Positions 8,447-18,232 of a stretch of 64,000 nucleotides of DNA are shown here, piece after piece. Made by a program: the position numbers and the translations under genes. Every line of letters starts with the position of its first letter. The first letter of the stretch is position 1. The stretch is from Mesorhizobium sp. M7A.F.Ca.US.008.03.1.1. Its GTDB lineage: Bacteria > Pseudomonadota > Alphaproteobacteria > Rhizobiales > Rhizobiaceae. The notes beneath the pieces are model-generated. The model did not search any database and was not told where the DNA came from. It worked only from the letters and a program-made list of their open reading frames with translations. Location: positions 124,001 through 188,000 of the forward strand of contig NZ_RZRU01000002.1 in NCBI RefSeq assembly GCF_003997495.1, in the 5' to 3' direction.

Positions 8447-9154
8447 ATGCGCCACCACCATGCCGTCATTCACTACCGTGCGCTCGATTTCTGGATGGCC
8501 CGTGCGGCCGTTCTCGTCATCATCTGCCTGCAGCTTCTGGTCATCAACAATCTCTCATTCGGGCCGCGCTGGCTGGCGCCCGCGCTGGAGGCCGCCCTGC
8601 TGCTGCCCTTGTCGGTGGCCACCGCCTGGACACAGGCCGCCACCCGGAAGGCGGTCGAGGACCACGAGTGGCATGCGATCGGCCAGTTTCGAGTCATGAT
8701 CCGCAGAACAGCGCTGACCATGACCGCCATCATCAGCATCATGAATTGCGGCTCGCTGGTCCTGTTGGTGCATGCCTTGCTGGAGGGCCATGCCGGCAAC
8801 AGCGGTACGACGCTGCTGATCGACGCACTCAACATCTGGGTCACCAATGTCATCGTCTTTGCCTTGTGGTTCTGGAGCACCGATCGCGGCGGCCCGCCGA
8901 CCTGCGGCCTCGTCAAGCTCGCACAGGCCGACTTCCTGTTCGCGCAGATGACGTTGAACGACCGTGAGCTTCGAGACTGGCTGCCCGGTTTCGTCGACTA
9001 TTTCTTCCTCGCCTTCACCAATGCGACGGCATTTTCGCCGACCGATACCTTGCCACTTTCCCAGCGCGCCAAGCTGCTGATGATGGCCGAGGCCATGATC
9101 TCGCTGCTGACCATCGCACTGGTCGCGGCACGCGCGGTCAACATCCTCGCTTGA
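8447..9154 (+). CDS. Uncharacterised multi-pass membrane protein
   Basis: Membrane protein of 235 residues with about five to six hydrophobic segments, beginning with a His-rich N-terminus (MRHHHAVIHYRALDFW). The C-terminal part, FFLAFTNATAFSPTDTLPLS followed by RAKLLMMAEAMISLLTIALV, resembles the pore-loop-like region seen in a family of rhizobial membrane proteins related to small ion-channel modules; that resemblance is from memory and is not a firm assignment. A perfect 10-bp-arm terminator follows 17 bases after the stop. Confidence 0.75.
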   Translation: MRHHHAVIHYRALDFWMARAAVLVIICLQLLVINNLSFGPRWLAPALEAALLLPLSVATAWTQAATRKAVEDHEWHAIGQFRVMIRRTALTMTAIISIMNCGSLVLLVHALLEGHAGNSGTTLLIDALNIWVTNVIVFALWFWSTDRGGPPTCGLVKLAQADFLFAQMTLNDRELRDWLPGFVDYFFLAFTNATAFSPTDTLPLSQRAKLLMMAEAMISLLTIALVAARAVNILA

Positions 9155-9318: not shown

Positions 9319-10076
9319 GATGGCGACGAAGCGGTATGAGTTGAGCGACGAGCAATGGCGGCGGATTTCGTCGCAGCTGTCGGGCAAGGTTGGTGACCCT
9401 GGCCGGACTGGCTCGGACAATCGGCTGTTCGTCAATGGTGTGTTATGGGTGCTTCGATCCGGTGCTCACTGGCACGATCTGCCAGAGCGCTACGGTAAGT
9501 GGAAGACGCTGCACAAGCGGTTCTCGCGCTGGTCCAAAGCCGGGGTATGGGACCGCGTCTTCGCGGATCTGACGAAGGATCGGGACAACCAATATTTGAT
9601 GCTGGACAGTACTCTGGTGCGCGCCCATCAACAGGCAGCGACCGGAAAAGGGGGGCCTCGGATCAGGCTCTGGGGCGCTCCCGAGGTGGACTAACCACCA
9701 AAATCCACATGCTTGCCGATACCTTCGGTCGTCCCCTCAGGTTCCTGCTTGCCGCCGGGCAGAGCCATGACATCTTGGCCGCGCCACTACTGCTCGAAGG
9801 CTGCACAGCCCAGGCCGTCCTTGCCGATAGGGCCTATGATCCAGCGCCCTGCGAAACCTCATCGACGAGATCGGGGCAAAGGCGGTCATTCCCTCGACCC
9901 GTTCCCGATCAGTCCCCATCCCGCATGATCCCATCATCTACAAATGTCGAAACCGCATCGAGCGCTGCTTCAACAAACTCAAGCACTTCAGGCGCTTCGC
10001 AACGCGCTATGACCGCAGGGCACGCCACTTCCCAAGCTTCATCCATCTCGCCGCAGCAATGATCTGGATGCGCTGA
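9319..10076 (+). pseudogene. IS5-family transposase, frameshifted
   Basis: DDE transposase read in three pieces. Piece one (MATKRYELSDEQWRRISSQL to QQAATGKGG) holds the N-terminal DUF4096 part and the first catalytic Asp (LMLDSTLVRAHQ). The shift at GAAAAGGGGGGCC (about 9645) may be the programmed frameshift known in IS427-type elements. Piece two (LGRSRGGLTTKIHMLADTFG to VLADRAYD) holds the second Asp. A further one-base loss near 9850 puts the end (IPHDPIIYKCRNRIERCFNK, with the catalytic Glu) in another frame, up to the TGA at 10074. The second shift is a real lesion, so this copy is probably inactive alone. Confidence 0.85.
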
Positions 10077-10784: not shown

Positions 10785-11108
10785 CTACTCGTCCCGCGCA
10801 CGGCTGACTCTCCGCACCACGAACTCGAACAGGGCGTCCGAGATCCACATCGCGCAGACGCCGATCAGGAAGGCCGCGGCCAGCGTGGTGGTGTCGTCGG
10901 CGGGATCGGGCATCGGCAGGCCGGCGATCCTGGCGTAGGAGACCGCCGGCAGCGTCAGATAAGCTGCCGCAAGCGCGCCGCAGATCGGCGAGGCCACCAT
11001 TTCGCGCAGCTTGTAGCGATGCCGCGACAGCGCGCGCAGAACGCCGCCGGCGAGACCCGCCGCCACGACCGGTCCCTTGATGCCGAGCAGGTCGAAAAGA
11101 TCGTTCAT
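10785..11108 (-). CDS. Phage-associated membrane protein, holin-like
   Basis: Membrane protein of 107 residues with three hydrophobic stretches (VVAAGLAGGV, ICGALAAAYLTLPAVSY, LAAAFLIGVCAMWISDALF) and a basic tail. It sits last in the lysis cassette, so a holin or holin-helper role is plausible, but no family was recognised. Two adjacent ATG codons (11108 and 11111) are possible starts; the first overlaps the stop region of the lipoprotein gene, which suggests coupling. Confidence 0.65.
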   Translation of the reverse strand: MNDLFDLLGIKGPVVAAGLAGGVLRALSRHRYKLREMVASPICGALAAAYLTLPAVSYARIAGLPMPDPADDTTTLAAAFLIGVCAMWISDALFEFVVRRVSRARDE

Positions 11109-11293
11109 CATGGCCTCCAGCCGCAAAGCTTCTGGCCCTTTTCGTTGTGAGCCAGGATCGCCGCCACCGACGCGTCGGAAAGGGTCGCCGCCTCTGCCCT
11201 TGTCGGCCGGATGGGATGCCCGGCCGCGCAGAACGACCCGCCTGATGTGGTGCAGCCGGCCAGCATCAGCGAGAGCACTATGATCTTGACCAT
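11108..11293 (-). CDS. Small lipoprotein, o-spanin (Rz1)-like
   Basis: Protein of 61 residues with a lipoprotein signal: MVKIIVLSLMLAGC, lipobox LAGC with Cys14. The C-terminal part ILAHNEKGQKLCGWRP matches the pattern of small lysis-cassette proteins in many proteobacterial prophages. It starts 16 bases inside the preceding one-helix gene in another frame, the nested arrangement typical of Rz/Rz1 spanin pairs that fuse inner and outer membranes at lysis. Assignment is by context and lipobox, not by sequence identity. Confidence 0.7.
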   Translation of the reverse strand: MVKIIVLSLMLAGCTTSGGSFCAAGHPIRPTRAEAATLSDASVAAILAHNEKGQKLCGWRP

Positions 11294-11511
11294 CTGGTGA
11301 GCCTCTCCCGGTTTTCATCCGGCGCCCGGCCGGCGACGGCGTCATCGATCTTCTGGGCTTCGGTGCGTGCCGCGGCGTCGGCGGCATCCTGCCTGGCCTT
11401 CTGGCTGGCCTTGCCCTTGGCATAAGCTGTCCAGACACCGGCAAGCGCGGCGCCCGTTGCCAGAAGATACGGCCAGGCCTGGCCAAGCAGCGCGAGGGCG
11501 AGTGTTCCCAT
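11278..11511 (-). CDS. Single-helix membrane protein, i-spanin (Rz)-like
   Basis: Protein of 77 residues: an N-terminal membrane helix (WPYLLATGAALAGVWTAYAK) followed by a charged Ala/Lys/Glu/Gln-rich helix (KASQKARQDAADAAARTEAQ) that could form a coiled coil. This topology is that of Rz-type inner-membrane spanins. The start at 11511 (MGTLALALL) is chosen because it directly precedes the membrane helix and follows the holin-like gene by one base. Its 3' end overlaps the lipoprotein gene. Confidence 0.65.
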   Translation of the reverse strand: MGTLALALLGQAWPYLLATGAALAGVWTAYAKGKASQKARQDAADAAARTEAQKIDDAVAGRAPDENRERLTRWSRS

Positions 11512-11512
11512 C

Positions 11513-11731
11513 TCATGTCTCCTTGGCCGGCGGCGCGACCATGCCGCGCGGCCCGTCACGCACCGCGTTGATGATGATCTTGGCAAGGGCAATGACGCCG
11601 CTGATCTGAAGCGCGGTGCGGTCGCTCACGCCGAGCAGCGTCCAGTCGAAGCCGGCGATCGCGCCGCCGCAGATGATGGCGATCAGCGTGTTGAGGAGAT
11701 TGTGCAGCGCATTGGTGTTGAACCATGTCAT
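11513..11731 (-). CDS. Two-helix membrane protein, holin-like
   Basis: Protein of 72 residues with two hydrophobic segments, LLNTLIAIICGGAIAGFDW and TALQISGVIALAKIIINAV, and a short basic cytoplasmic tail. Size, topology and position right after the endolysin gene fit a phage holin that controls endolysin release. The start at 11731 overlaps the endolysin stop by four bases. Confidence 0.65.
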   Translation of the reverse strand: MTWFNTNALHNLLNTLIAIICGGAIAGFDWTLLGVSDRTALQISGVIALAKIIINAVRDGPRGMVAPPAKET

Positions 11732-12438
11732 CGAAACAGGCTCCCGAAAAAATCGGCTACCTGATGCCGGTAGGCCGCGAGCGCTCCGGCCATGAGGACG
11801 AGGATGCCGGCCGCGGCAGCCGTCTTGCCGCCGGTCGCCTGCGGCACGGGCTGAACCGACGGCGCCCCATTGGCCGATGTTTCGACCCTGAGCGGCACCG
11901 GCGCGGTCACCGACACCGCGGGGCGCTGCGCCGACATCAGCAGGGCCTGAACCCGCACCGACCTGACCCGATCGGACCAGCCGCGCCCGAATGTTGCCCA
12001 TGTCGGCAACCGCTTGAGGAACGCCAGCCGCGCATCGCAAAGCGCATCGATGGTGACGCCGGCCGGCTTTGCCTTGGCCGCCGCGACGGTGACCGGTCCG
12101 ATCCGCCCGTCCTGGGCAACGCCGACGGCCGCCTGCAAATATTTGGCCGCCCGGCCAGGCCCGCTGTTGACGGCGAAATCGAACACCGCATGGTCGACGC
12201 CATCGGGCAATTCGGCGCCGAGCACAGCGTCCCAGTAGAAGCGGCGATAAACGGTGGCGACCTGCGCGTCGCTGATCGCAAGCAGATCCACCTTCGTCGC
12301 GTCGGCCTTCACATAGCGGCGGAAGCTGGCAAGCGTCACACCTTTCATGGTGGCGCCGCCGGGATCGGCCGGATTGTCCGACCACCCGCCTTCCGATTTG
12401 AGAACAAGCGCAAGCGCCCGTGCGAAGTTGCGGTCCAT
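11728..12438 (-). CDS. GH108-family endolysin with C-terminal membrane segment
   Basis: Peptidoglycan hydrolase of 236 residues. The N-terminal GH108 domain carries the hallmark SEGGWSDNPADPGGATMKGV at about residues 14-33, where the Glu in SEGG is the catalytic residue. A PG_binding_3-type region follows (DAVLGAELPDGVDHAVFDFA, NSGPGRAAKYLQ). The last 35 residues form a membrane helix (AAAAGILVLMAGALAAYRHQ), unusual for a simple endolysin. It leads the lysis cassette, and the region just upstream (12439-12684) separates it from the divergent plus-strand insert. Confidence 0.88.
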   Translation of the reverse strand: MDRNFARALALVLKSEGGWSDNPADPGGATMKGVTLASFRRYVKADATKVDLLAISDAQVATVYRRFYWDAVLGAELPDGVDHAVFDFAVNSGPGRAAKYLQAAVGVAQDGRIGPVTVAAAKAKPAGVTIDALCDARLAFLKRLPTWATFGRGWSDRVRSVRVQALLMSAQRPAVSVTAPVPLRVETSANGAPSVQPVPQATGGKTAAAAGILVLMAGALAAYRHQVADFFGSLFR

Positions 12439-12684: not shown

Positions 12685-13377
12685 ATGTTCTTAGACGCCG
12701 TCCGAAACATTCGCGACCTTGGCTTTGAAATTCTCACCATCGGCAAGAGAACGGTAACGGTCCGAAACATCACCCTGTCTTTAAACGGCGTCTCCCGCCG
12801 CATGCGATATGTGATGGCCAGAGGCTACGAGGATCAGGACGCGGCTCTGGCTTCGCGCTTTCTGAACCGCCACGACAAGGTTCTTGAAGCTGGCAGCGCG
12901 ATCGGCTTCATGGCGCTGAACTGCATGATCGAGGCAAACCCGCGCCTGGAGGCATCCATGAGGGAGAATTTTCGCCTCAATGGGATCAGCCTGCCCGTTC
13001 TCAAGACCGTGGCTGTCGGTCCATCCGACGGCTCTATCAGTTTCGGTATCAGCCAGAATTTCTGGTCATCCAGCGCATTGCGTCGGGACAACGAAGCTGA
13101 ACGGCTCACCCTACCTATGCTCTCGATCCCGACAATCGTTTCAGAGCTTCCGTTCAAGCCAAATGTCTTGATCATGGATATCGAAGGTGCCGAAACAAGC
13201 ATTCCGCCGAACCATTTTGAGTTATTTGAAAAGCTGATTGTCGAGTTCCACCCCAAGTTGACGGGTCATGCCGAAGCGCTGGAGTTGGAGCGAAACATAA
13301 CCAAGCGTGACGGAGTTTGGTCGGGCTGGAGGAACAATCGCGTTTATAAAGACGTGATGATGGCCGATTCGGGGTGA
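12685..13377 (+). CDS. FkbM-type methyltransferase, possibly shortened
   Basis: Protein of 230 residues of the FkbM SAM-dependent methyltransferase family, often found with polysaccharide genes, where members methylate sugars. Family blocks are VLEAGSAIGFMAL (motif I, about residue 70), EANPRLEASMRENFRLNG, PNVLIMDIEGAE and the closing EFHPKL. Between GFMAL and EANP only a few residues remain, where family members usually have ten or more additional ones, so motif I to II looks shortened and activity is doubtful. The start follows AAGGAACCGAG. It is first of three co-directional genes. Confidence 0.78.
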   Translation: MFLDAVRNIRDLGFEILTIGKRTVTVRNITLSLNGVSRRMRYVMARGYEDQDAALASRFLNRHDKVLEAGSAIGFMALNCMIEANPRLEASMRENFRLNGISLPVLKTVAVGPSDGSISFGISQNFWSSSALRRDNEAERLTLPMLSIPTIVSELPFKPNVLIMDIEGAETSIPPNHFELFEKLIVEFHPKLTGHAEALELERNITKRDGVWSGWRNNRVYKDVMMADSG

Positions 13378-13384
13378 GACAGCC

Positions 13385-13822
13385 GTGAGACCAATTGCTT
13401 TCATTGCCATTGCCGTCGGACTTGGAGCGGCTATGACTATCGGCGTCCTAACATTCGGTACTCCTAAGGTTCCCAAAGCCGTGCCGAAGCCGGCAGAAAT
13501 AAAGGACATCAAAGGTCGACTTACGGTGCTCACCGCCAATTCGTTCAAAGTGGATGGCACTTCCATTGTTCTCTGTGGAGTTAGGCCATCAGGTAAGACA
13601 TCCGCGGAAAACGCAGCTCAGAGCGTCAAGCTTTCTTATGAAAATGCCTATGTGAAATGTAGGCCTGTCGGCGGCGGTACCCCATGCGATGGGAAGACGG
13701 TGGCGACCTTAGGTGCATCTACCGTAGCGCAATGCAAGATTGACGGGGCGCTTGACTTGGCAACGGCTCTGACAGACTCCGGCATTCTTTGCGGGACGAT
13801 CCCTAGCTACAAGTCGTGCTAG
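13385..13822 (+). CDS. Small exported protein, possibly thermonuclease-fold derived
   Basis: Protein of 145 residues with an N-terminal hydrophobic anchor or signal (FIAIAVGLGAAMTIGVLTF) and a 110-residue domain. The run VLTANSFKVDGTSIVLCGV recalls the OB-fold start of staphylococcal-nuclease-like domains (a strand, VDGxxIRLxGI), but the usual catalytic Asp/Arg residues are not evident. Five Cys (LCGV, VKCRP, TPCDG, AQCKI, ILCGT) plus a C-terminal Cys suggest disulfides. The start is GTG; it lies 8 bases after the methyltransferase and 3 before the polymerase-like gene. Confidence 0.6.
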   Translation: MRPIAFIAIAVGLGAAMTIGVLTFGTPKVPKAVPKPAEIKDIKGRLTVLTANSFKVDGTSIVLCGVRPSGKTSAENAAQSVKLSYENAYVKCRPVGGGTPCDGKTVATLGASTVAQCKIDGALDLATALTDSGILCGTIPSYKSC

Positions 13823-13825
13823 CGA

Positions 13826-15022
13826 ATGTCGCACTATTACGCCCAAACCCCACGCATTCCAATCGCCAAGCAGTCGACTTTTGCGGACAAACTGAAGACG
13901 ATTTACGTCGTTGTTGGCGTCATCGCCATGAGTCTGCAAAGCGTCTACCTGCCCCAATTCGGGATGGCCGCCTTTTGCTACCTCGGGCTTCTCATGCTGA
14001 TCCCGCTGCTAAATGCGCCGGTCAAGGCAAATGTTTTTTGGATCGTCGCTTTCCTACTAGTCGGGATGTGCGGGACCTTGGCCACAGCGGAAGATGGCGG
14101 AACCAAAGCAGTCCTAGGCACGATTGGTAGCAGCTTGGCTCTCATTCTCGTTCCAGCTTGCTTTGCCAAAGATACTCGCCCTTTGTTGATTGGTTTGCGA
14201 TGGGCGATCGCTGCGCACGCGCTTATGGTGCTGTTCCAGATCATCTATTTCGCGGCGTTCCGAACTTATTTTGACCCGTTGGCAAGTCTTGGCCTTGGTG
14301 ACCAAGCGGTCATGAGCAAGAAAGGACTCGAGCTTGCCGTCGGCAGAGTGCCGCGCTTTGCAGGCTTGTCGAATGAACCGGGCACACATTCGACCATGAT
14401 CGCGAGCCTGCTTGCCGGCGAGTATGCTCTTTCACGCAAGCTCTCCAAGGTCTCAATTTTAGGCATTCTTTCCGCGATCGCGACGATGTCGCTTGGCGGC
14501 ATGATGTTCGTCGCAATGTTCTGCGGAGTTGTTGGGCTCCACCAATTTTTCGCTGTTCGCAAATGGAGGCTACTTGTCGCCGCGATCGGCACGGCGCTGC
14601 TTTCGGTCATGATCTATTGGGCGTTGCTGAATCTTGAGACAAGATCACAACTCTATGTCGAGGGTACGCAGCACGATCAGATGATGGAATGGGCATTTTC
14701 CTACCAGCGGATAACGCTGTTTGGCCTAAGCGAAAGTCAGATACCGATATTCTTCACATTTGGCTATCTGGGTGTTGGTCTCGACTTCCTGCTCCGATAC
14801 GGCTTGTGGGCAGTTATAGGGGTTGCTGTGTATTTGTTGAGTTTGCCGCTCTTGGGCATTGGCCTGTCGATTGTGCTGTTGGCCACAAAATTGAAACTGA
14901 CATATCCTCTAGTTTTCGTCATCCTCGCAACGATCAACTTAGGCATGACGCAGAACCCTTACGCAAAGTTGCGAATTCATCCTAGGCTTCGAAATCTCCC
15001 GACCAGCCGATCGCCGAACTGA
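13826..15022 (+). CDS. O-antigen polymerase/ligase-like membrane protein (Wzy-like)
   Basis: Integral membrane protein of 398 residues with about ten hydrophobic segments and a central periplasmic loop. The stretch PRFAGLSNEPGTHSTMIASL is typical of the Wzy/WaaL group, which polymerise or ligate O-antigen or other polysaccharide units at the outer face of the inner membrane. Low sequence conservation in this group makes the call depend on topology and this motif. Its 3' end overlaps the tailspike gene by 41 bases in opposite direction, so the natural C-terminus may have been altered when the insert arrived. GC is lower than in the neighbours. Confidence 0.68.
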   Translation: MSHYYAQTPRIPIAKQSTFADKLKTIYVVVGVIAMSLQSVYLPQFGMAAFCYLGLLMLIPLLNAPVKANVFWIVAFLLVGMCGTLATAEDGGTKAVLGTIGSSLALILVPACFAKDTRPLLIGLRWAIAAHALMVLFQIIYFAAFRTYFDPLASLGLGDQAVMSKKGLELAVGRVPRFAGLSNEPGTHSTMIASLLAGEYALSRKLSKVSILGILSAIATMSLGGMMFVAMFCGVVGLHQFFAVRKWRLLVAAIGTALLSVMIYWALLNLETRSQLYVEGTQHDQMMEWAFSYQRITLFGLSESQIPIFFTFGYLGVGLDFLLRYGLWAVIGVAVYLLSLPLLGIGLSIVLLATKLKLTYPLVFVILATINLGMTQNPYAKLRIHPRLRNLPTSRSPN

Positions 15023-17294
15023 CGACCCACAATCCCGCCGCGTAGGCCTCCAGCACCACGCGCTCGCCAGGATCGAGGATCAGATACTTTCCGGCGCCGC
15101 CGCCCTTGATCGTGTCGGTCCTGTCGGGATCGACATTCATGACATGGGTCGCGTGCACGGCGGCAAAACCGATCCGAAGGCCAGACACGGCAGGCGGCAG
15201 CGTATGCGTCCGCGCCGCGCCGGCGCCGTTGTTGTGGCAGAGTGCGCGGTTGTGAAGCCCTAACAGCGTTGTGTTGACGGTTAGATTGATCGGCACACTC
15301 GACGTCCCCTGCAAGCTGGGATTGTCGCCACCAATGAACCGGGTCACGATGCCGCCCGTGATGGAGCTGCCAGTGCCATCGCCAACCCATTCCGACATGT
15401 CGAAACCGTCGACAAGCATTTCGTCGATCACGCCGCCGGTGGTCACACGCAAGGCGATGCCAACGGAGGTGGAGTTCTTCAGAGCGATGTCCCTGAGACT
15501 GGCTTTGCGCAGCCTTTGGCCGGCGGAAAGGTTGAACCGGATGCCGTGCGACTGGGTGTTGCCCCTGATACCCGTCAGGCTAAGGCTCGCCGGGGTGACG
15601 CTGTTCGCAACCACCACGGCATCGGTCGAGCAATTCATCAGCGTGCCTGGGCCGATCGCAAGCGACGTCTGGTATGGCGCGGCGATTGCAGCCGTGGCGC
15701 CAGACGTGCCGCCCGTGATCGTCTCGCCAGCCGAGAAGATGCCGGACGAACCGCGCACATAGATGCGCCGGGTCACGCTGCTTACCGCTTTGGCGATCCC
15801 CGAGATCCCGCCGGTGATTGTTTCAGCGGCCTGGAATGTCCCGCTTGCCGGCAAGACGCGCAGCACATTGGCGAAGGAATCGACCAAGGTGCCTGTCGCG
15901 CCGGATGAACCGCCTGTCACCGTCTCACCGAGTTCATAGTCGACGGTTGAACCGGTGATGACGATTTCAAAATGTTGGAACCGCAGGGTTCCGGTCGAGC
16001 CAGACGTACCGCCGCTGACCGTTTCGCCAGTCGCAAACGATCCAACTTGCGAGTTGAGGGCGAACTGATATTCGCCGTTTGGCTCCAATTGCAGGGCGGT
16101 GTTGTAGCGATCGATGTACCAGTTATCGAGCCGGCCTGACTGAATCTGAACGCCGAACACGTTACCGGCAGAACTACCGGAGAGCCGGTTGCCGATTGCC
16201 TTGACATTCGAAATGACGATCTCGCTGTTGGCGTCAGTCGCGGCTACGCCTACCAGACAGTCATTCGCCACCACGTTAGTTATGATCCCTCGTGGATCTC
16301 GCGCACCGGTCATCTCCACCCAGATACCAGCGGAGGGACTGTCGAGATGTGCATCCGCGAAAACCCCGTCGACCAGCACGTCCGTGGTGTTTAGATTCCC
16401 CGTATAGGTCAACACGACACCGTCGCGTTTGCACTTCGCCGACCGGATGTTGCGCACGATCGGCTTGCGGACGCCGGCCACGTAAACCGTGTCGCCAAAC
16501 TCGCCGCCGGTTGGCGTGATGATGTTATAGCCGTCAATGTCCTCAATCGTCGGACTGTCGACACAGAGCGCCATAACACCGGCAAGGCCAAGATTGCGAA
16601 CCTTCACGCCGCGGATTGTCGGCCGCTTCCGGCGTGCACCAGTGGAGAGGCCTACGCGAATACCAATAGAAGCCTGGTAGCCGGCATGTGATCCACCATC
16701 GATCGTGAGGTCCCCGTCTATCAGGACGTCATCGGCAGCGATATCGATGACGGGATGGTGGCCGGTAACGGTACCGACTGGCGCACGCAGGATCAGGGCA
16801 GAGCCGCCCAGGCATTCGACGCGCTTCTTCGCTGTCGAGATCGTGTGGTTGCCGTCGGTCTGGTAGGAGCCGTCAATCAGCACATGCGGATAGCTGCCCG
16901 CGAGCAGTGCACTGATAGCAGCCGTGGCATTCGCACCGCCACCACGCGCCCCGAGCATTGATGCCGTCACCGGGGTTGAGGCGAGCGTATAGCCTGTCGT
17001 CGTCATGCCATCGCTCAGCGTGATCACCAAATCCCCGACATTCGTTCCATTCTTGCGGTACACAGCGCCGCTGCCTGCCACCTGAGAGCTGTCGTAGAAG
17101 GCGGTGCGGATATATGTGGGTGCTAATGGCGGGGAAAATGCCTCCGCCGTCGCCTTGGTCGCGAATTGCGGATCGAGCACGGTTGTCATGGCGCCCGTCG
17201 CTACGTCTGCAGCGGCCTGGGCCTGGTCGATGATGCCTTGCGCGGCTGCCTGGATATCCCCGACTGTGTCGTCGGACTGGTAGAACGACAGCAC
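14982..17294 (-). CDS. Phage tailspike-like protein, 5'-truncated
   Basis: Protein of at least 770 residues with a right-handed beta-helix core (short repeats such as VLIDGDLTIDGGSH, ITNVVANDCLVGVAATDANS) as in polysaccharide-degrading tailspikes. Four related segments lie at about residues 415-540: GETVSGGTSGSTGTL, GETVTGGSSGATGTL, AETITGGISG and GETITGGTSGATAA. The first usable start is GTG at 17294, but coding-like reading (FAFQTLNPVIGTDDI) continues upstream to a stop at 17355, so the true N-terminus that would attach to the virion is missing. Confidence 0.78.
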   Translation of the reverse strand: MLSFYQSDDTVGDIQAAAQGIIDQAQAAADVATGAMTTVLDPQFATKATAEAFSPPLAPTYIRTAFYDSSQVAGSGAVYRKNGTNVGDLVITLSDGMTTTGYTLASTPVTASMLGARGGGANATAAISALLAGSYPHVLIDGSYQTDGNHTISTAKKRVECLGGSALILRAPVGTVTGHHPVIDIAADDVLIDGDLTIDGGSHAGYQASIGIRVGLSTGARRKRPTIRGVKVRNLGLAGVMALCVDSPTIEDIDGYNIITPTGGEFGDTVYVAGVRKPIVRNIRSAKCKRDGVVLTYTGNLNTTDVLVDGVFADAHLDSPSAGIWVEMTGARDPRGIITNVVANDCLVGVAATDANSEIVISNVKAIGNRLSGSSAGNVFGVQIQSGRLDNWYIDRYNTALQLEPNGEYQFALNSQVGSFATGETVSGGTSGSTGTLRFQHFEIVITGSTVDYELGETVTGGSSGATGTLVDSFANVLRVLPASGTFQAAETITGGISGIAKAVSSVTRRIYVRGSSGIFSAGETITGGTSGATAAIAAPYQTSLAIGPGTLMNCSTDAVVVANSVTPASLSLTGIRGNTQSHGIRFNLSAGQRLRKASLRDIALKNSTSVGIALRVTTGGVIDEMLVDGFDMSEWVGDGTGSSITGGIVTRFIGGDNPSLQGTSSVPINLTVNTTLLGLHNRALCHNNGAGAARTHTLPPAVSGLRIGFAAVHATHVMNVDPDRTDTIKGGGAGKYLILDPGERVVLEAYAAGLWVVSSAIGWSGDFEA

Positions 17295-17529
17295 AATGTC
17301 ATCGGTTCCGATAACGGGGTTCAGCGTCTGGAAGGCAAAGCTGCCCTCACCCCGTCAACCGTTTTCTGAGAAAAAATTCCTAGTCCGTTCGAAACTCCCG
17401 CTCTGACCGACGCCGGCAAGCGCGTGAAACCCTGCTTTTGCCGGCGGCTGGTCATAAGCCTGCAGGTGTGAAATCATTAGCCGAAGCTCATGGAATGATT
17501 CCCGTCGCACGGCCTTGTGGGAGAGGACG

Positions 17530-17799
17530 ATGGACAGACCCGCCATGGCATCCGTGTTCAGGATGCGGCATGCACCAGCCACGCTTTCCGGCGTGCGCAG
17601 CACCGGTCAGGGTCAGGCCGATCCAGTCATCCGCGTGCGTTCGCTGGGCGAAGCCATCCGTTTCGTCGCCAACGCTTACCCCCAATATGACATCAGCGCC
17701 GTCGCCATCAGCTGCGGCGATCCTTCGGTCACGCGCCTTGGCAGTCTGGAGGTGAAGGTGCTGTGGCGCGAATATGGCGAGCGCCTGACGCAGGAATAG
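17530..17799 (+). CDS. Hypothetical protein, 89 aa
   Basis: Soluble protein of 89 residues; not recognised. An N-terminal basic, Ser/Ala-rich part precedes a compact region (IRVRSLGEAIRFVANAYPQY, then LGSLEVKVLWREYGERL) that looks like an alpha/beta fold. The start at 17530 is preceded by GAGAGGACG; an earlier ATG has no ribosome site. It lies just outside the prophage piece. Confidence 0.6.
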   Translation: MDRPAMASVFRMRHAPATLSGVRSTGQGQADPVIRVRSLGEAIRFVANAYPQYDISAVAISCGDPSVTRLGSLEVKVLWREYGERLTQE

Positions 17800-17875
17800 G
17801 CCGCTTCCGCGCGCCTTCCGGATCGGAAACGCCGCTGGCGCGTTTCAACTGCGACCAATGGAGGGAAAAAACGCC

Positions 17876-18181
17876 ATGAACGTCGCCAACCTGCAACTCG
17901 AAGGCCTGCTCATGGCCGTCGCATCGATCAATCATGTCCTGGTTCGAAAAGGCATACTGACGGCCGAGGAGATCGACATCGCCTTGCGCAAGGCCGAGGC
18001 CAGCGAAACCAGCCAGGAGCGATCCGAAGGCATGTCGGCGTCCAGCCGCGACGCCGTCAACTTTCCGATACGGCTGCTGGAACTCGCCAACCAGTGCCAG
18101 CCGGAGGCCGACATGCCCTCCTTTTCAAAACTGGCCCGGATGGTCGGCAAGGTGAAGGAACCCTACAACGACCAGCTGTGA
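17876..18181 (+). CDS. Hypothetical protein, 101 aa
   Basis: Soluble, mostly helical protein of 101 residues. The N-terminal 45 residues (LQLEGLLMAVASINHVLVRK and LTAEEIDIALRKAEA) form two amphipathic helices, as in small rhizobial proteins of unknown role, followed by a polar linker and a short C-terminal helix. GGAGGG lies 11 bases before the chosen ATG; an in-frame ATG at 17858 overlaps this ribosome site and is less likely. Confidence 0.6.
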   Translation: MNVANLQLEGLLMAVASINHVLVRKGILTAEEIDIALRKAEASETSQERSEGMSASSRDAVNFPIRLLELANQCQPEADMPSFSKLARMVGKVKEPYNDQL

Positions 18182-18232
18182 GGGTGCCGGCGGGCGGGCG
18201 GACGTGCTTCGCGGTGGCCGGCCGGCCTCGCC

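What the first reader, a model, noticed from the sequence alone, without database searches (positions are those of the whole stretch)
12685..17294. FkbM methyltransferase and Wzy-like polymerase lodged between a tailspike and an endolysin
Seen: minus-strand late-phage order (tailspike then endolysin and lysis genes) is interrupted by a three-gene plus-strand block of lower GC encoding an FkbM-type methyltransferase, a small exported protein and a 398-residue polymerase/ligase-like membrane protein. Known: temperate phages such as D3, Sf and P22 types carry serotype-conversion genes (Wzy, O-acetylases, glucosyltransferases) so the lysogen's O-antigen no longer binds the phage tailspike. Inference: this block is a surface-polysaccharide conversion cassette paired with the spike that reads the polysaccharide, kept in a decayed rhizobial prophage. 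The middle gene, with a thermonuclease-like start but no clear active site, would be a new component, perhaps an inhibitor of the resident polymerase as Iap is in D3.
Basis: partly seen in the sequence, partly recalled or inferred. Interest (0 to 1): 0.72.

Follow-up and report, generated by a model that had tools for sequence, protein, structure and literature searches.

The report
Prophage spike paired with sugar-coat genes
A defective virus in a Mesorhizobium (legume-symbiont) chromosome carries, beside the gene for the spike that grips the bacterium's sugar coat, genes likely to alter that coat; related viruses across the genus use the same spot for a changing set of coat-altering enzymes that goes with the spike type.

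Summary
A low-GC plus-strand block (FkbM methyltransferase, 145-aa exported protein, 398-aa polytopic protein) lies between a beta-helix tailspike and a GH108 endolysin in a prophage remnant of Mesorhizobium. Nearest relative: M. ciceri WSM1271, same site. The slot is not peculiar to this remnant. In related prophages across the genus, spike-to-endolysin is a cargo bay for surface-polysaccharide enzymes: EpsG polymerases, acyltransferase-3 proteins, methyltransferases, glycosyltransferases, sulfotransferases, a deacetylase. They occur in 21 of 23 loci with long spikes; 58 ORFs on the spike's other side gave none. Prophages sharing a spike receptor domain usually share cargo (19/28 pairs versus 9/225), even where the endolysins differ in ancestry. 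Weaker points: the 398-aa protein matches no polymerase family and its fold prediction failed; the window's FkbM has lost ten residues in the SAM site and its C-terminal frame. The middle protein is no phage-type inhibitor: its relatives sit beside manC in host exopolysaccharide clusters. Known precedents: Sf6, P22, D3 and Acinetobacter wzy prophages. What appears new is the rhizobial setting and the interchangeable, spike-matched enzyme slot, retained in truncated remnants.

The parts
8447..9154 (+). left chromosomal flank (conserved membrane protein, present in 98 of 146 genomes)
   Evidence: flanks prophages, remnants and empty sites
10785..11516 (-). ORF whose C-terminal ~95 residues are holin-like
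   Evidence: PHROG 2359 holin E 1.8e-5, PHROG 13918 E 1e-18
11728..12438 (-). endolysin (glycoside hydrolase 108 + peptidoglycan-binding)
   Evidence: Pfam PF05838 E 6.5e-25; PHROG 315 E 7e-49
12685..13377 (+). FkbM-family methyltransferase, lacking ten residues between SAM motif I and the acidic residue, with a frame-shifted C-terminus
   Evidence: NCBIfam TIGR01444 42.8 bits; alignment with two relatives
13385..13822 (+). 145-aa membrane-anchored exported protein; relatives lie beside manC in host exopolysaccharide clusters
13826..15022 (+). 398-aa polytopic membrane protein, proposed repeat-unit polymerase (Wzy-like)
   Evidence: about 9 hydrophobic segments; same slot holds EpsG polymerases in relatives; dN/dS 0.16 against M. 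ciceri
14982..17294 (-). beta-helix tailspike, N-terminally truncated relative to fuller prophages
   Evidence: Pfam PF13229; fuller 935-aa relative L085:6555-9362
17341..17382 (-). promoter-like element of the prophage right end, fused directly to the truncated spike
17876..18181 (+). right chromosomal flank (conserved small protein, present in 138 of 146 genomes)

Best explanation
The block is a lysogenic-conversion (serotype-converting) cassette of a podovirus-like temperate phage that integrates at a fixed site in Mesorhizobium chromosomes. The phage's tailspike reads a cell-surface polysaccharide. The adjacent cassette encodes enzymes that change that same polysaccharide in the lysogen: here a candidate replacement polymerase plus a methyltransferase and a helper derived from a host exopolysaccharide cluster. 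The altered coat would no longer be recognised by that spike, shutting out relatives of the phage and sparing its progeny from binding debris. Spike and cassette form a matched pair that is exchanged as a unit between phage backbones; the polymerase can also be swapped within the cassette. In this genome the rest of the phage is gone, FkbM is probably damaged, and the 398-aa gene and the spike remain open with a low dN/dS. Shown here: site, prophage origin, recurrent polysaccharide cargo in the slot, spike-cargo association, exchange between backbones. Inferred: that the 398-aa protein polymerises repeat units, that the cargo is expressed in the lysogen, and that it blocks spike binding.
For: Prophage origin: flanks of the site are 1.5-2.8 kb apart in 5 genomes, 3-16 kb in 22 and 29-42 kb in 11 (from coordinates); G053 carries the same spike next to podovirus tail genes (PHROG 376 E 7e-182, PHROG 394 E 3e-49); 41 IMG/VR viral contigs carry the same spike N-terminus. 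Slot content: EpsG, Acyl_transf_3, FkbM, CmcI/RfbT-like and other methyltransferases, GT2/GT4/GT25, sulfotransferases, polysaccharide deacetylase, again in viral contigs. 34 of 57 slot ORFs against 0 of 58 control ORFs on the other side of the spike (Fisher 3e-14, ORFs not independent). Long-spike loci with such cargo 21/23, short-fibre loci 4/13 (P 3e-4). Similar spike receptor domains share cargo in 19/28 pairs versus 9/225, 0 of 20000 permutations. Backbone discordance: L084 has the window's spike type and FkbM but an endolysin nearer L088/L092; L094 and L095 have endolysins 92-93% identical to the window's but other spikes and EpsG. dN/dS: 398-aa gene 0.16, spike 0.17.
Against: No enzymatic or surface phenotype is known. 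The 398-aa protein hits no Pfam, NCBIfam or PHROG polymerase and hhalign found no link to the other slot polymerases or the host polymerase; the AlphaFold model is unusable. No sigma-70-type promoter was found in front of the cassette. Slot enzymes are not all on the strand opposite the late genes: EpsG genes are co-oriented with the spike. Shared ancestry inflates the spike-cargo association. FkbM in the window is probably impaired.
Confidence: 0.75

Rival explanations
1. Domesticated locus: after loss of the phage, host lineages kept the spike-plus-polymerase module as a surface-type switch or a polysaccharide-trimming enzyme, and recombination with incoming prophages keeps exchanging it.
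For: Seven truncated remnants share the same fusion of the spike to the right-end element but carry three spike types with different cargo; the spike and the 398-aa gene stay open with dN/dS 0.16-0.17 between two remnants whose truncation is shared.
Against: A 6-bp microhomology CT(A/T)TGC at the junction allows recurrent deletion, and L095 differs by one base there; low dN/dS may reflect time spent in functional phages; truncated spikes have no conserved start codon.
Confidence: 0.15
2. The block is a host exopolysaccharide fragment inserted by chance into a decayed prophage, unrelated to the spike.
For: Low GC; the 145-aa protein's relatives sit in host exopolysaccharide clusters; the exact three genes occur only in remnants.
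Against: The same slot is filled with unrelated polysaccharide enzymes in full-length prophages and viral contigs, and cargo follows spike type.
Confidence: 0.06
3. The cargo modifies something other than the spike's receptor, for instance protecting virions or defending against unrelated phages.
For: Enzyme types are diverse; some spike types carry more than one modification enzyme (L128, L132).
Against: Cargo identity tracks the spike receptor domain rather than the backbone.
Confidence: 0.15

Closest known systems
Shigella phage Sf6 tailspike (gene 14) and oac (gene 15)
   Same: Converting gene directly next to the tailspike and convergent with it; spike is an enzyme acting on the modified polysaccharide (record annotation).
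   Different: A single O-acetylase between spike and integrase in an enterobacterial phage; no interchangeable polymerase slot beside the endolysin.
Pseudomonas phage D3 (Wzy-beta, Iap, O-acetylase)
   Same: Phage-borne polymerase that changes O-antigen linkage; D3 infection gives resistance to superinfection (PMC4815439).
   Different: D3 carries an inhibitor (Iap) of the resident polymerase; no counterpart found here, and the 145-aa protein belongs to a host-cluster family.
Acinetobacter baumannii prophages with wzyPh
   Same: Prophage Wzy replaces the capsule linkage; wzy1Ph prophages nearly always carry one depolymerase spike type, and the same protective role was proposed (PMC9241936, PMC13228068).
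   Different: Unrelated genes and host; no interchangeable slot with methyltransferases, acyltransferases, glycosyltransferases and sulfotransferases was described in the passages read.
P22-like gtrABC operons (epsilon34, P22, BTP1)
   Same: Mobile O-antigen-modifying operons in intact and degraded prophages; spikes with a conserved N-domain and exchangeable C-domain (PMC2629481, PMC7067206).
   Different: Glucosylation or acetylation by gtr operons, in a different genomic setting.

Membership tests
Serotype-converting moron of temperate phages | Carried by a prophage or its remnant | tested here: met
   Occupied, remnant and empty sites in related genomes; virion genes beside the same spike
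Serotype-converting moron of temperate phages | Encodes surface-polysaccharide-modifying enzymes | tested here: met
   FkbM by NCBIfam; EpsG, AT3, GT, MT in the same slot of relatives
Serotype-converting moron of temperate phages | Expressed from its own promoter in the lysogen | tested here: inconclusive
   Opposite strand to late genes in the window, but no sigma-70-like promoter found; no transcript data
Serotype-converting moron of temperate phages | Changes serotype and blocks adsorption | not testable with these tools
   Needs wet-lab assay
Wzy/WaaL polymerase-ligase | Sequence match to a polymerase or ligase family | tested here: not met
   No Pfam, NCBIfam, PHROG or PDB match; such proteins are often unassignable by sequence
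Wzy/WaaL polymerase-ligase | About 10-14 transmembrane helices and GT-C type fold | tested here: inconclusive
   About 9 hydrophobic segments; model pLDDT 39
FkbM methyltransferase | Match to the family model | tested here: met
   TIGR01444 42.8 bits, cut-off 37.7; Pfam PF05050 below cut-off
FkbM methyltransferase | Intact SAM-binding region | tested here: not met
   Ten residues missing after motif I and C-terminus out of frame relative to L084 and L086
Iap-type inhibitor of the resident polymerase | Small phage-specific peptide without a host-cluster counterpart | tested here: not met
   145 aa; relatives are host genes beside manC
Beta-helix tailspike | Right-handed beta-helix domain and phage tail-fibre N-domain | tested here: met
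   PF13229 26.1 bits, cut-off 25.9; N-domain present in the fuller relative, PHROG 11518 tail fibre, but truncated in the window

The most novel reading that the evidence does not exclude
The truncated loci are a domesticated system: after losing the phage, Mesorhizobium lineages keep the spike-plus-coat-enzyme module at one chromosomal address, and it keeps exchanging matched modules with incoming prophages, acting as a chromosomal surface-type switch.
Probability: 0.15. Interest if true: 0.78.

Novelty: new variant of a known kind. Interest (0 to 1): 0.55.

Why it matters
Rhizobial surface polysaccharides affect nodulation, and phages use such coats as receptors. A single prophage slot that swaps non-homologous coat-modifying enzymes in step with the spike gives a natural catalogue of receptor-reader/receptor-editor pairs. 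It makes a general proposal (that depolymerase phages carry an enzyme that hides the host from their own spike) directly testable, and suggests prophages shape rhizobial coat diversity.

Tried and rejected
AlphaFold models of the 398-aa protein and of the 145-aa protein (two sequences each) were both unusable, pLDDT 39, so no fold search was run. The 398-aa protein: no relative in phages, plasmids or viral contigs, one in the genus, none outside it among 395 family genomes, no PDB sequence match. hhalign gave no link between the 398-aa protein, the two other slot polymerase families, EpsG and the host polymerase. A suspected link to the 331-aa slot protein of L138/L226, suggested by similar first residues, failed on comparison. 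The right-end element was first taken as a possible att core; it is absent from empty sites and not found at the left end, and looks more like a phage promoter. The idea that this is an unlinked gene-transfer-agent lysis locus was dropped once full-length prophages with podovirus tail genes were found at the site.

Full report
What is there. The window lies in a Mesorhizobium genome: the 398-aa gene has one close relative in public genomes, in M. ciceri bv. biserrulae WSM1271 (91% identity), and that locus is colinear with the window across the block and both flanks at about 90% nucleotide identity. Between a GH108 endolysin (11728-12438, minus) and a beta-helix tailspike (14982-17294, minus) sit three plus-strand genes: an FkbM methyltransferase, a 145-aa exported protein and a 398-aa polytopic protein. 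Their GC content is 53.3% against 63.1% for the window, at the minimum for that length in the window.

It is a prophage remnant at a fixed site. The host genes at 8447-9154 and 17876-18181 are conserved in the genus (98 and 138 of 146 genomes). From their coordinates in the 38 genomes where I could pair both flanks on one contig, they are 1.5-2.8 kb apart in 5 (empty), 3-16 kb in 22 (remnants) and 29-42 kb in 11 (full-size prophages). In G053 the same spike has its full N-terminal part and lies beside podovirus-like tail genes. Forty-one viral contigs in IMG/VR encode the same spike N-terminus. The spike in the window lacks about 118 N-terminal residues and is fused to a promoter-like element that marks the right end of the prophages.

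The slot is a cargo bay. I read 50 loci in total. Between spike and endolysin the relatives carry EpsG polymerases, acyltransferase-3 proteins, FkbM, CmcI/RfbT-like and other methyltransferases, glycosyltransferases of families 2, 4 and 25, a WsaF-like glycosyltransferase, sulfotransferases and a polysaccharide deacetylase, with similar genes in viral contigs (some of these contigs are the same prophages). As a control, 58 ORFs from the 4.5 kb on the other side of the spike contained no such family, against 34 of 57 in the slot. Loci with long spikes carry such a gene in 21 of 23 cases; loci with a short fibre, often followed by an extra tip-like ORF, in 4 of 13. Counting one per spike type, 11 of about 13 long-spike types carry one.

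Cargo follows the spike. Among 23 long-spike loci, pairs with similar receptor domains share homologous cargo in 19 of 28 cases, other pairs in 9 of 225; no permutation in 20000 reached this. Relatedness inflates this, but the endolysin identities argue against simple shared descent: G029 (L084) has the window's spike type and FkbM with an endolysin closer to G022/G036, while G080 and G081 have endolysins 92-93% identical to the window's with different spikes and EpsG. So spike and cargo travel together. Within the window's spike type the polymerase itself is swapped: the 398-aa protein in the window and M. ciceri, a 459-aa polytopic protein in G029 beside the same FkbM gene, and a 41%-identical 431-aa relative of that one with another methyltransferase in G053.

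The three genes. FkbM passes the NCBIfam cut-off, but in the window it has lost ten residues between SAM motif I and the acidic residue, and its C-terminus is out of frame relative to two relatives, so it is probably impaired. The 145-aa protein has relatives in 40 of 146 genomes; in most loci examined these lie beside manC or a second small exported protein in a host exopolysaccharide cluster with Wza-, tyrosine-kinase- and polymerase-like genes (named from recall of such clusters, not by family scan), present also in this genome. That argues against an Iap-like phage inhibitor and for capture from such a cluster. The 398-aa protein has about nine hydrophobic segments and lies in the polymerase slot, but has no family match and its model failed. 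I call it a candidate polymerase, not a member of the Wzy family.

How it most likely works. Following Sf6, D3 and the A. baumannii wzy prophages (PMC4815439; PMC9241936; PMC13228068), the cassette would change the polysaccharide that the spike reads, so that the lysogen is no longer bound or cleaved by the same spike. Polymerases would do so by changing the linkage between repeat units, the other enzymes by decorating the units. Gene order, association with spike type and exchange between backbones are shown here; expression, enzymatic activity and blocked adsorption are inferred.

An open point. Seven truncated loci share the same fusion junction although they carry three spike types, and the spike and the 398-aa gene evolve with dN/dS 0.16-0.17 between two of them. 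Either one ancestral remnant has kept exchanging spike modules, which would mean domestication, or the deletion recurs at a 6-bp microhomology. The data do not decide.

Novelty. Phage-borne serotype conversion beside a tailspike is known, and a protective pairing of a depolymerase with a Wzy was proposed for Acinetobacter in 2026 (PMC13228068). My literature searches found no account of it in rhizobia or of one slot that exchanges many non-homologous enzymes in step with the spike. The library is partial, so this is not proof of absence.

Noticed in passing
window 17341-17382; also L148, L172-L175, L180-L182, L185: A conserved element TAGGAATTTTTTCTCAGAAA..GTTGACGGGGTGAGGGCAGC(TATGCTACAT) marks the right end of these prophages, sometimes in two to four copies; it resembles a promoter with an operator.
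   Followed up: partly
L084, L088, L092, L180 versus window, L086, L087, L095 (window 17406-18188): Two small host genes right of the prophage occur in swapped order in two groups of species, just outside the prophage end.
   Followed up: no
control ORFs on the far side of the spike, e.g. L093:5572-6261: Seven of 58 such ORFs match the T6SS immunity protein Tdi1 C-terminal domain and two match HNH endonuclease: possibly a second cargo site.
   Followed up: no
L130, L146, L147, L150-L152, L160, L165: A second architecture: shorter fibre followed by an extra ORF (Laminin_G_3 lectin-like in L130), mostly without polysaccharide enzymes.
   Followed up: partly
L168, L170, L171, L192: Host exopolysaccharide cluster (manC-like, Wza-like, tyrosine-kinase-like, polymerase-like genes) with two small exported protein families of unknown function.
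   Followed up: partly
window 9499-10062: Transposase fragment (DDE_Tnp_1, E 1.6e-5) between the left host flank and the lysis genes.
   Followed up: no
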